From an uncultured Fodinibius sp. (GTDB lineage: Bacteria > Bacteroidota > Rhodothermia > Balneolales > Balneolaceae), in contig CAJXMW010000002.1 in NCBI GenBank assembly GCA_913056235.1, positions 186,001 to 250,000 on the forward strand: 64,000 nt of DNA, written 5' to 3'. How positions within the stretch are numbered: position 1 is the first letter of the stretch; every line of letters begins with the position of its first letter. A model generated the notes under the pieces. That model was not told the origin of the DNA. It saw only the letters and a list, made by a program, of their open reading frames with translations, and ran no database searches. A program made the translations under genes and the position numbers. Below, one piece after another: positions 8,084 through 9,795 of the stretch.

Positions 8084-8117
8084 TCTTAGTTTGTAGTTAA
8101 GTTATTGAGTTTGAATT

Positions 8118-8146
8118 GCCGCGGTCTTTTAGATCGCGGCTTTTTT
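8118..8146 (+). terminator. rho-independent terminator after the STAS gene
   Basis: Stem 8118-8126 with 8132-8140 (nine pairs, one G-U), loop of five, then six T. A very similar hairpin, with similar flanking bases, follows the ankyrin pseudogene at 8835. Confidence 0.9.
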
Positions 8147-8261
8147 ATATTTGGTAAGGTTCACAGGACTGACTGAATAGGAGTCACCACAAGCTGACGG
8201 ATGTTCATCACAAAATGAAGGCATGTTAGTTACTTTCTCATGAACTCATATATGTAATCTC

Positions 8262-8280
8262 CGTAACGGGTAGATAACTC
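8262..8280 (+). promoter_or_regulatory. upstream element shared by the two ankyrin paralogues (copy 1)
   Basis: The sequence CGTAACGGGTAGATAACTC lies 24 bp before the first ankyrin start; a near copy lies at 8965-8982, 31 bp before the second. The conservation is better than in the surrounding leader, which suggests a shared promoter or operator, or simply a duplicated leader. Confidence 0.4.
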
Positions 8281-8304
8281 AAATATGAACCAAACGGAGA
8301 TCAT

Positions 8305-8800
8305 ATGAAATCCCCTAAACTCTCTATATTCGGATCTGTATTAGTACTGACTGTAATGCTGCCTGCTGCCTATTCTTCCGAACCAGGGCTGGATGCGGAT
8401 GTTAAACTAGCTATTCAAACGAGTGATGTTTCTTCGCTGGCGTCATGGTTTGCCAATGGTGGCGATATAAATCGAACGGACAAAAATGGCAATACCTTGC
8501 TAATGCTCCCGTCTAAAAATTGGAGACAGGCCAACGCTTGACTACTTGTTCGAGCAGTCCCCCGATGTAAATGTCCAGAATAATGCGGGTGCTACGGCGC
8601 TGATGATTGCTGCCAAATATGGTCATTCTTTTGTGGTTGATTTGCTGTTGGAAAAGGGAGCCGATCTCAGAATAACAAATAATTACGGCGTGTTAGCTTC
8701 TCGTTTTGCTCTTGCTTATGACCATCCGGACGTCTATTAACAACTTCAGCGAGCAACCATAGAGCAGTATCGTCAAAAAACCACCCAAAAGCTGAATTAG
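8305..8800 (+). pseudogene. secreted ankyrin-repeat protein, frameshifted and with an in-frame stop
   Basis: Reading from the ATG at 8305 (GGAGA just upstream) gives a signal peptide ending near AAYSS and the first ankyrin repeat, then the frame breaks. One extra A in the run 8515-8519 shifts it: with four A instead of five, the sequence continues SKIGDRPTLDYLFEQ and joins the frame that encodes two more repeats (DVNVQNNAGATALMIAAKYG). The restored frame then meets TAA at 8738-8740, after which it stays open to TAG at 8798 and encodes QLQRATIEQYRQ, a tail also found after the stop of the neighbouring paralogue. About 50 percent identical to the gene at 9014. Either a pseudogene or a sequencing error in a homopolymer; the frameshift itself is clear. 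Confidence 0.8.
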
Positions 8801-8834
8801 ATCAATCATGCAATTAAACAACATTGAGTGTTAA

Positions 8835-8866
8835 ATGTCGCGGTTTTTAGAATCACGGCATTTTTC
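8835..8866 (+). terminator. terminator after the ankyrin pseudogene
   Basis: Imperfect eleven-pair stem (8835-8845 with 8851-8861, one mismatch and two G-U pairs) followed by T-rich sequence. It resembles the STAS-gene terminator in stem, loop (TTTTAGA) and the preceding ATTGAGT, so the two may be copies. Confidence 0.65.
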
Positions 8867-8964
8867 ATTTTAAAGAGGTATTTGTACCAATTATCACATC
8901 TTATGTGGTTTCACAACAACATATTGCGGTAAGTCACTTTCAGTTAACCTCGGCAGTCGATGGT

Positions 8965-8982
8965 CGTAACGGTAGATAAATC
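8965..8982 (+). promoter_or_regulatory. upstream element shared by the two ankyrin paralogues (copy 2)
   Basis: CGTAACGGTAGATAAATC, one base shorter than copy 1 at 8262. Both are followed by an ATGAA(C/T)CC-like stretch about ten bases further on. Confidence 0.4.
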
Positions 8983-9013
8983 TGATCATGAATCCCTAAT
9001 AGCAGGAGGCTTT

Positions 9014-9445
9014 ATGAAACTTTCAAAACTATCAATTTCATTGTCGGTACTGATGTTGATGCTGGTATCGTCTTCACTGGCTTCGCAACAATCAAAATTG
9101 GATGACAAGGCTAAAAAAGCGATTCGGAATAGTAATGTCACCATGTTAGCCAATTGGCTTGAGAACGGTGGTGATATCAATGAAACGACCAAGAATGGCA
9201 ATTCGTTGCTGATCTTGGCTTCTAAAATTGGTGACAAGCCAACCATCGATTTTCTGCTGTCAAAGCAGATCAAAGTTAATTACCAAAATGAGGTTGGTGC
9301 CACCGCTCTCATGTTAGCAGCCAAATATGGACACGATCACGTGGTAGAAATGTTGTTGGATGAAGGGGCCGATCCCACGCTAACTAATAATTCGGGGGTA
9401 TCTGCCGCACAATTTGCAAAAGCTTATGGGCATTACGATCTATGA
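9014..9445 (+). CDS. secreted ankyrin-repeat protein
   Basis: Start chosen at 9014 because a strong AGGAGG lies five bases upstream and a clean signal peptide follows (MKLSKLSISLSVLMLML, cleavage near SLAS). The mature part of about 120 residues holds three ankyrin repeats (NGNSLLILASKIGD, VGATALMLAAKYGHDHVVEML, NSGVSAAQFAKAYGH). Ankyrin repeats bind protein partners; here the site would be periplasmic. The gene ends at TGA 9443-9445, but the frame stays open for another 21 codons to TGA 9509, encoding QQLQDAAMEHYRDD, which matches the post-stop tail of the pseudogene upstream. So the ancestral protein was probably longer, or the UGA (followed by C, a leaky context) is sometimes read through. 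Confidence 0.85.
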   Translation: MKLSKLSISLSVLMLMLVSSSLASQQSKLDDKAKKAIRNSNVTMLANWLENGGDINETTKNGNSLLILASKIGDKPTIDFLLSKQIKVNYQNEVGATALMLAAKYGHDHVVEMLLDEGADPTLTNNSGVSAAQFAKAYGHYDL

Positions 9446-9534
9446 CAACAATTGCAGGATGCCGCAATGGAGCACTACCGAGATGATGAACAACCGGCTC
9501 CCACTAGTTGAATTAGAATAATTAAATAATCATT

Positions 9535-9573
9535 AAAAAAGGCCGCTTACTGATGAAGTAAGCGGCCTTTCCT
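9535..9573. terminator. bidirectional terminator between ankyrin gene and mini-histone
   Basis: Perfect ten-pair GC-rich stem (9541-9550 with 9558-9567), A-run on the left and T-run on the right, so it can stop transcription from both sides. On the minus strand the U-tract is longer, making it the terminator of the mini-histone gene. Confidence 0.9.
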
Positions 9574-9594
9574 AATAAAATAATAAAGTAGTAA

Positions 9595-9795
9595 TTATGA
9601 GTTTTTAATCTCGTCTACTTTGCCAGTGTTCTTCCACTCTTGAATTTCCATTCGGATATCTTGTGCTTTCTTCTTCATTTCCTGAAGAGTTTTGCGTGCA
9701 CGAGTACCGGCAGCTTTGTTACCTTTGTTATAGAACTTGTTAATATCTGGTTCTAGCTGTTCTAACAGTTCGTTCATTTCATCGTATCGGCTCAT
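9595..9795 (-). CDS. histone H1/Hc1-like DNA-binding protein
   Basis: A 66-residue, mostly helical, highly charged protein. It matches the short Hc1-like histone family widespread in Bacteroidota, with the core NKFYNKGNKAAGTRARKTL followed by an amphipathic helix (KKKAQDIRMEIQEWK). The basic central segment (about residues 21-43) is the part expected to contact DNA or RNA; the N-terminal 20 residues are acidic. It probably acts as an abundant nucleoid-associated protein. It stands alone between a strong terminator and its own promoter region, where an inverted repeat with sigma-70-like spacing is visible. Confidence 0.85.
   Translation of the reverse strand: MSRYDEMNELLEQLEPDINKFYNKGNKAAGTRARKTLQEMKKKAQDIRMEIQEWKNTGKVDEIKNS

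What the first reader, a model, noticed from the sequence alone, without database searches (positions are those of the whole stretch)
8738..9511. Two tandem ankyrin genes both carry an in-frame stop, one codon apart, and stay similar beyond it
In the restored frame of the first gene the sequence after TAA (8738) reads QLQRATIEQYRQ; after TGA (9443) of the second it reads QQLQDAAMEHYRD. Lining up the His before each stop puts the two stop codons one position apart, and the tails match at most positions although the DNA differs at synonymous sites (Leu ctt/ttg, Tyr tat/tac, Arg cgt/cga). Such protein-level conservation is unexpected in true 3' UTR. Options: recent independent loss of the last 20 residues, or regulated readthrough; both stops are followed by C, a weak termination context, especially for UGA.
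Basis: partly seen in the sequence, partly recalled or inferred. Interest (0 to 1): 0.6.

Follow-up and report, generated by a model that had tools for sequence, protein, structure and literature searches.

The report
Two decaying ankyrin genes, independent stops
Two neighbouring copies of a small ankyrin-repeat gene in a bacterium have each picked up their own premature stop codon near the end, which looks like ordinary gene decay rather than a new way of reading stop codons.

Summary
Gene 1 (8305-8800) and gene 2 (9014-9511) are tandem duplicates. TAA (8738) and TGA (9443) lie one codon apart, and the first 12 tail codons are as protein-like as the body (dN 0.39 against 0.33; dS saturated in both). 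The explanation is ordinary. All 32 homologues aligned have a sense codon at both positions and continue 9-22 residues past gene 2's stop, so the longer protein is ancestral. Gene 1's TAA faces CAA in gene 2, and gene 2's TGA faces TAT in gene 1, so the stops arose separately, after the duplication. Gene 1 is also out of frame at an A5 run (A4 in gene 2), so it is a pseudogene. Gene 2 loses most of its last predicted helix. No stop-reading anticodon was found at 45 tRNA places, no selenocysteine tRNA passes its cut-off, and none of the 32 shares a stop. Readthrough is not excluded for gene 2 alone: its genus carries a tRNA-Trp with a G:A mismatch in the anticodon stem, a type reported to raise UGA readthrough in E. 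coli when overexpressed. Low interest.

The parts
8103..8160 (+). Terminator-like hairpin and T run after the STAS gene; first copy, upstream end of the duplicated unit
   Evidence: 44 of 54 aligned bases match 8822-8877, gapped, z 7.2 against shuffles
8161..8304 (+). Leader of gene 1, similar to the leader of gene 2 (8878-9013)
   Evidence: 89 of 124 aligned bases, gapped, z 3.9
8305..8541 (+). Gene 1, 5' part: signal-peptide-like start (my reading) and ankyrin sequence; frame lost at the A5 run, ends at TGA 8539
8515..8519 (+). A5 run where gene 1 leaves the family frame (A4 at 9224-9227 in gene 2)
   Evidence: sequence; frames
8516..8740 (+). Gene 1, 3' part in the other frame: ankyrin repeats, then TAA 8738-8740
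   Evidence: Pfam Ank matches for 8546-8737
8741..8800 (+). Tail of gene 1: 19 codons in frame with the 3' part, then TAG 8798-8800
8822..8877 (+). Second copy of the terminator-like hairpin, after gene 1
   Evidence: hairpin also in the fold
9014..9445 (+). Gene 2: 143-codon ankyrin-repeat protein with a signal-peptide-like start (my reading); ends at TGA 9443-9445
   Evidence: Pfam Ank_4 3.7e-16
9446..9511 (+). Tail of gene 2: 21 codons in the same frame, then TGA 9509-9511
   Evidence: aligns with the C-termini of 32 homologues
9535..9572 (+). Strong terminator-like hairpin after gene 2
   Evidence: z -4.78 for 9440-9580, fold dominated by this hairpin

Best explanation
An accessory gene for a small, probably exported ankyrin-repeat protein was duplicated in tandem together with its upstream terminator and leader. 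Both copies kept the ancestral frame of about 165 codons while they diverged. Later each copy was hit separately. Gene 1 gained a base in an A run, and a codon that is CAA in gene 2 became TAA. In gene 2 the codon that is Tyr or Phe in its nearest relatives is now TGA. The tails still look like protein because too little time has passed since the stops appeared. Gene 1 is a pseudogene. Gene 2 most likely gives a 143-residue product that lacks most of the last helix and is probably impaired. Shown: the alignment, the sense codons in 32 homologues, the sister relation, the separate codons, the frame loss. Inferred: recency, mutational route, loss of function.
For: 32 of 32 homologues have a residue at both stop columns and at least 9 residues beyond gene 2's stop. 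Genes 1 and 2 are sisters (95/90) and share similar upstream DNA, so the duplication came before the stops, which lie in different codons. The first 12 tail codons evolved like the body (pN 0.30 against 0.27; of 60 body blocks of 12 codons 43 have pN no higher and 18 no lower). AlphaFold2 puts the last helix at residues 141-158, and the stop is codon 144. The pair is accessory: none of the 11 congener stretches around orf66 holds an ankyrin match at E 1e-3, and in 6 of the 11 the STAS gene sits beside orf66. Five neighbouring genes (STAS, orf66, orf221, cdd, nagZ) are open and match congeners over nearly their whole length.
Against: dS is saturated, so recency cannot be dated, and 12 codons are few. 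Two stops one codon apart is a mild coincidence (0.13 if both had to fall in a 22-codon tail; 0.03 if one could fall anywhere in the 3' part). In the tree gene 2 has the longer branch (0.75 against 0.33) although gene 1 has more lesions. Each keeps 23 of 32 strongly conserved columns, at the low end of the homologues (21-32; 29 of 32 keep more), which fits either decay or a divergent branch. A more distant homologue (L026) has sense codons at both columns but ends 4 residues later, so a short C-terminus can exist in the wider family. No second strain was available.
Confidence: 0.82

Rival explanations
1. Leaky or regulated readthrough: some ribosomes read gene 2's UGA as Trp and make the full-length protein. 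Gene 1's UAA would need another mechanism.
For: Coding-like tail. UGA followed by C. The tRNA-Trp(CCA) of the genus has a G:A mismatch at 27:43: 7 of the 30 loci read, all from this genus. A C27A 4-bp-stem tRNA-Trp raised UGA readthrough about 2.5-fold when overexpressed in E. coli (PMC13092985, section 20). Gene 1 and the two nearest homologues have Tyr, Phe and Tyr at the codon, so Trp would be a mild change.
Against: No stop there in 32 of 32 homologues. No stop-reading anticodon at 45 tRNA places, no tRNA-Sec over cut-off. TGA ends 65 of 296 mechanically called genes of the 400-kb stretch. Such a tRNA would not read gene 1's UAA, and that part of gene 1 is behind a frameshift. The same paper cites an in vitro test in which C27A alone gave no UGA readthrough, and calls the native significance unassessed.
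Confidence: 0.08
2. Sequencing or assembly error: the A5 run and one or both stops are not in the organism.
For: Homopolymer indels are a usual error (general knowledge); only one assembly was available. Another gene on the contig (g174, G000:C2:30595-31118) also matches its congener in three different frames.
Against: Lesions are rare around: among 230 G009 genes with a match in the 400-kb stretch, 207 passed the filter and one of these (g287) has clear internal stops; of the 5 dropped for coverage one (g174) is split over frames. Two nonsense substitutions plus one indel in about 930 bases stand out, and the five neighbouring genes are open. This control holds conserved genes only.
Confidence: 0.07
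3. Gene 2 is a working shorter protein: the stop was accepted because the tail is dispensable, and only gene 1 is dead.
For: Most of the ankyrin repeats remain; the last residues vary in length and sequence across the family, and one distant homologue is nearly as short (L026); gene 2 has its own leader and strong terminator.
Against: 32 of 32 homologues of the closer set keep at least 9 residues beyond the point, and the cut falls 3 residues into the last predicted helix.
Confidence: 0.3

Closest known systems
In-frame stop codons in otherwise conserved bacterial genes (Belinky et al. 2021, PMC7918605; abstract, part 1 of Results and part 1 of Discussion read)
   Same: Stop inside a frame that stays protein-like beyond it; such stops are described there as widespread and mostly short-lived
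   Different: That paper concentrates on stops shared by two or more species; here none of 32 homologues shares the stop, and the two stops are in paralogues at neighbouring codons
Bacterial pseudogenes made by duplication followed by frameshift and nonsense mutation (general knowledge)
   Same: Tandem copies, frameshift in an A run, nonsense codons, accessory locus
   Different: Both copies are hit near the same spot, which chance allows
[quoted passage not shown] abstract and sections 6, 18, 20 read)
   Same: The tRNA-Trp of this genus lacks the 27:43 pair and, by my reading, keeps A9 and G24; one of the two stops is UGA
   Different: No reassignment seen: TGA is a common terminal stop; only one of the two stops is UGA; readthrough was not measured here
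Ankyrin-repeat proteins (Pfam Ank families)
   Same: Pfam Ank_2, Ank_4, Ank_5, Ank over cut-off
   Different: NCBIfam models that match, Dot/Icm effectors included, are far below their cut-offs: it shares only the repeat

Membership tests
Programmed or functional stop-codon readthrough | Protein-like sequence continues in frame past the stop | tested here: met
   12 codons like the body
Programmed or functional stop-codon readthrough | The stop itself is conserved between species | tested here: not met
   0 of 32 homologues has a stop at either column
Programmed or functional stop-codon readthrough | Stimulating context or structure, or a dedicated suppressor tRNA | tested here: inconclusive
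   C follows both stops; fold from gene 1's stop on z -1.46 (14 of 200 shuffles fold as well), that of gene 2 owed to the terminator; no stop-reading anticodon at 45 tRNA places, a list that may be incomplete; tRNA-Trp has a 27:43 mismatch
Programmed or functional stop-codon readthrough | Extended protein is made | not testable with these tools
   No proteome or ribosome profile
Selenoprotein (UGA as Sec) | tRNA-Sec gene present | tested here: not met
   Best score 45.1 against a gathering score of 47; the two best places read as tRNA-Ser (cga, tga)
Pseudogene | Frame-breaking lesions absent from intact homologues | tested here: met
   Gene 1: extra A plus TAA; gene 2: TGA; sense codons at both stop columns in 32 of 32 homologues
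Pseudogene | Loss of selective constraint | tested here: inconclusive
   Each keeps 23 of 32 conserved columns; 29 of 32 homologues keep more; dS saturated
Ankyrin-repeat protein | Ankyrin repeats over the curated cut-off | tested here: met
   Pfam

The most novel reading that the evidence does not exclude
In this genus the tRNA-Trp that lies before a secE-like gene lacks the top pair of its anticodon stem, so UGA is mildly leaky. Gene 2's TGA, at a codon that is aromatic in its closest relatives, is then a tolerated soft stop: a small fraction of chains gets Trp and the full C-terminal helix. That would be a natural case of tRNA-softened nonsense in a bacterium with the standard code.
Probability: 0.08. 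Interest if true: 0.5.

Novelty: new member of a known kind. Interest (0 to 1): 0.18.

Why it matters
As it stands it matters little: it is a clear example of how a tail past a stop can look selected because the stop is younger than the divergence, and it warns against calling readthrough from two paralogues alone. It would matter more if the mismatched tRNA-Trp of this genus made UGA leaky, because such tRNAs are said to be unassessed at native levels (PMC13092985).

Tried and rejected
A remnant of the ankyrin gene in congeners: in 4 of the 6 congeners with the STAS gene beside orf66 about 170-200 bases lie between the matches; the other two hold a 105-106-aa gene there; tblastn of the family against those two intervals gave nothing better than E 0.018. 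For the other 5 of 11 congeners the STAS gene was not in the stretch taken, and one search shows only 63-68% identical STAS genes elsewhere in them, apart from one 24% match; no ankyrin match lay in those stretches either.

Programmed frameshift at A5 in gene 1: it would need +1, the run is short and gene 2 has A4; not pursued.

A first survey for in-frame stops (232 stops) was swamped by antisense shadow frames and 5' overhangs and was replaced. One search gave 17 stop rows in 207 passing genes: 9 in six genes set aside as start-site or gap artefacts (within the first 14% of the query), 2 in the last codons, 4 in one 100-aa frame (g294) that I judge a shadow frame, and 2 in g287 (TGA at 9% facing Trp, TAA at 68% facing Gln). 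By the start-site rule alone g287's TGA would also go; I kept it because the same gene has the TAA. One search found no split frames, but its 60% coverage filter would hide them; one search looked at what it dropped: 296 queries, 230 with a match, 18 under 45% identity (not examined further), 5 under 60% coverage, of which g174 is split over three frames and g281 has one stop. The survey sees genes shared with G009 only, not accessory genes like this pair.

Genome-contig scan with gene 2 found no relative. A copy of the upstream DNA elsewhere in the genome: in the table only the query's own place and two chance-level matches (E 0.72); even the second leader did not show, so that search was not sensitive. 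Foldseek was not run: the ankyrin fold is not in doubt.

Note 1 of the notebook gives the A5 run as about 8518-8522 and the tail stop of gene 1 as 8799-8801; the sequence and say 8515-8519 and 8798-8800.

Full report
What is there. The window lies in a 3.97-Mb, 9-contig genome (G000:C2:186001-250000). The nearest named relatives of a neighbouring gene are Fodinibius/Aliifodinibius and other Balneolaceae, environmental bacteria (recalled). Two ankyrin genes follow a STAS gene. Gene 2 (9014-9445) encodes 143 residues with Pfam ankyrin repeats and a signal-peptide-like start (my reading; no signal-peptide tool was run). Gene 1 (8305-8800) is its relative in two frames: the first ends at TGA 8539, the second runs to TAA 8738. 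The switch is at an A5 run (8515-8519) that is A4 in gene 2.

The stops are one codon apart, both before C, and the next 12 codons are alike at the protein level: 7 identical residues, 9 of 14 base changes at third positions. Controls: 0 of 100,000 shuffles and 61 of 200,000 random post-stop pairs score as high. Nei-Gojobori gives dN 0.39 and dS 1.86 for these 12 codons, 0.33 and 2.12 for the 71-codon 3' body: the tail evolved like the body. The last 7 compared tail codons share no residue, and the family's C-termini also vary in sequence and length.

Homologues decide the direction. Searches of 58, 12 and 92 genomes (the sets overlap) found many relatives. I aligned 32: the 30 that laid as loci, one and one; one of the 32 is this genome's own distant paralogue (L068). 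All 32 have a residue at both stop columns and continue 9 to 22 residues beyond gene 2's stop. The long protein is therefore ancestral, and none of the 32 shares the truncations. These are the best full-length matches, not a random sample. One weaker relative aligned earlier but not in this set (L026) has residues at both columns and ends 4 residues later. Other weaker matches in the listings, some with stops somewhere in the matched stretch (for example G004:C78 and G028:C40), were not examined one by one.

Order of events. On an 88-column tree genes 1 and 2 are sisters with support 95/90; their grouping with G006 and G021 is weak (81/15), but these and one long-branched row stand apart from the other 29 with 99/98. 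Gene 2 has the longer branch (0.75 against 0.33). Their upstream DNA is also similar: 44 of 54 bases at a terminator-like hairpin and 89 of 124 in the leader (gapped). So the unit was duplicated first. The stops came later and separately: TAA in gene 1 faces CAA in gene 2, and TGA in gene 2 faces TAT in gene 1. That CAA changed to TAA is an inference from the paralogue; the codon before TGA is not known, but Tyr, Phe and Tyr stand there in gene 1, G006 and G021.

What is lost. AlphaFold2 on gene 2 read through (TGA as Tyr, two rows only, mean pLDDT 73.5 for the best of five models, 42.7 for the worst) puts the last helix at 141-158, with block means of 94 and 69 there. The native stop is codon 144. 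Gene 2 would lose most of that helix, which I read as the second helix of its last repeat. Whether it still works is open: it keeps 23 of 32 strongly conserved columns, as gene 1 does; homologues keep 21 to 32, and 29 of 32 keep more than 23.

The place is accessory. None of the 11 congener stretches taken around orf221 and orf66 has an ankyrin match at E 1e-3. In 6 of them the STAS gene sits beside orf66; two of these have a 105-106-aa gene between that shows no ankyrin match better than E 0.018. An intact, more distant paralogue lies at C1:787494-787964.

Readthrough was tested from several sides. No stop-reading anticodon appears in ARAGORN's output for the 45 tRNA places found; the list may be incomplete, since 150 of 222 first-look candidates were scored and no tRNA-Ile with GAT appears. 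tRNA-Sec does not reach its cut-off. Two genes with the release-factor domain, of 364 and 366 codons of open frame, are present. TGA ends 65 of 296 mechanically called genes in 400 kb. Of 296 genes of the congener G009, 230 have a match in that stretch; 207 passed the filter (82,688 aligned residues), and one of them has clear internal stops; among 5 dropped for coverage one is split over frames (rows set aside are told in Tried and rejected). So nothing points to a genome-wide use of stops as sense, though the survey holds conserved genes only. One fact leaves a small door open: the tRNA-Trp of this genus has G:A at 27:43. It was read in 30 loci, while 50 of 58 genomes had a match; 7 loci have the mismatch, all 7 from this genus (7 of the 8 genus members searched, this genome included; G009 gave no match), and the 23 from other genera do not. 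The paper on such tRNAs (PMC13092985) does not name Balneol-, Fodinibius, Bacteroidota or Rhodotherm- in its main text (supplements not seen), cites an in vitro test in which C27A alone did not give readthrough, and stresses that native significance is unassessed.

Compared with what is known. Stops inside conserved bacterial frames are described as widespread and mostly short-lived (PMC7918605: abstract, part 1 of Results and part 1 of Discussion). This case fits that picture. Three literature searches showed no paper on this gene pair among the 15, 12 and 12 rows listed; I did not search further.

Verdict. Confirmed observation, ordinary cause: two independent, probably young truncations in a decaying tandem pair, with gene 1 a pseudogene. 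The readthrough option is kept at 0.08.

Noticed in passing
G000:C9:63415-63487 (L152, L184); L182, L183, L185, L186, L188, L189: The tRNA-Trp(CCA) before a secE-like start (name recalled) has a G:A mismatch at 27:43 in all 7 genus members where it was found, and in none of the 23 loci read from other genera of the family.
   Followed up: partly
G000:C1:1399003-1399076 (L149): A second, divergent tRNA with anticodon CCA; by my reading its lowest anticodon-stem pair (31:39) is A:C.
   Followed up: no
G000:C2:38284-38491 (L213): A gene with internal stops, TGA facing Trp and TAA facing Gln of a 117-residue G009 protein at 46% identity.
   Followed up: no
G000:C2:30595-31118 (L213): Matches a 273-residue G009 protein in three overlapping pieces in three different frames, so it looks frameshifted twice.
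   Followed up: no
window 8084-9594; L161:6301-6621; L166:7074-7391: The interval between the STAS gene and orf66 is a variable spot: ankyrin pair here, a 105-106-aa gene in two congeners, about 170-200 bases in four.
   Followed up: partly
window 9595-9795, - strand: 66-residue ORF kept at 87-94% identity in 11 of 11 congeners, with only a weak NCBIfam match (histone H1-like HctA, 20.4 bits against a cut-off of 100).
   Followed up: no
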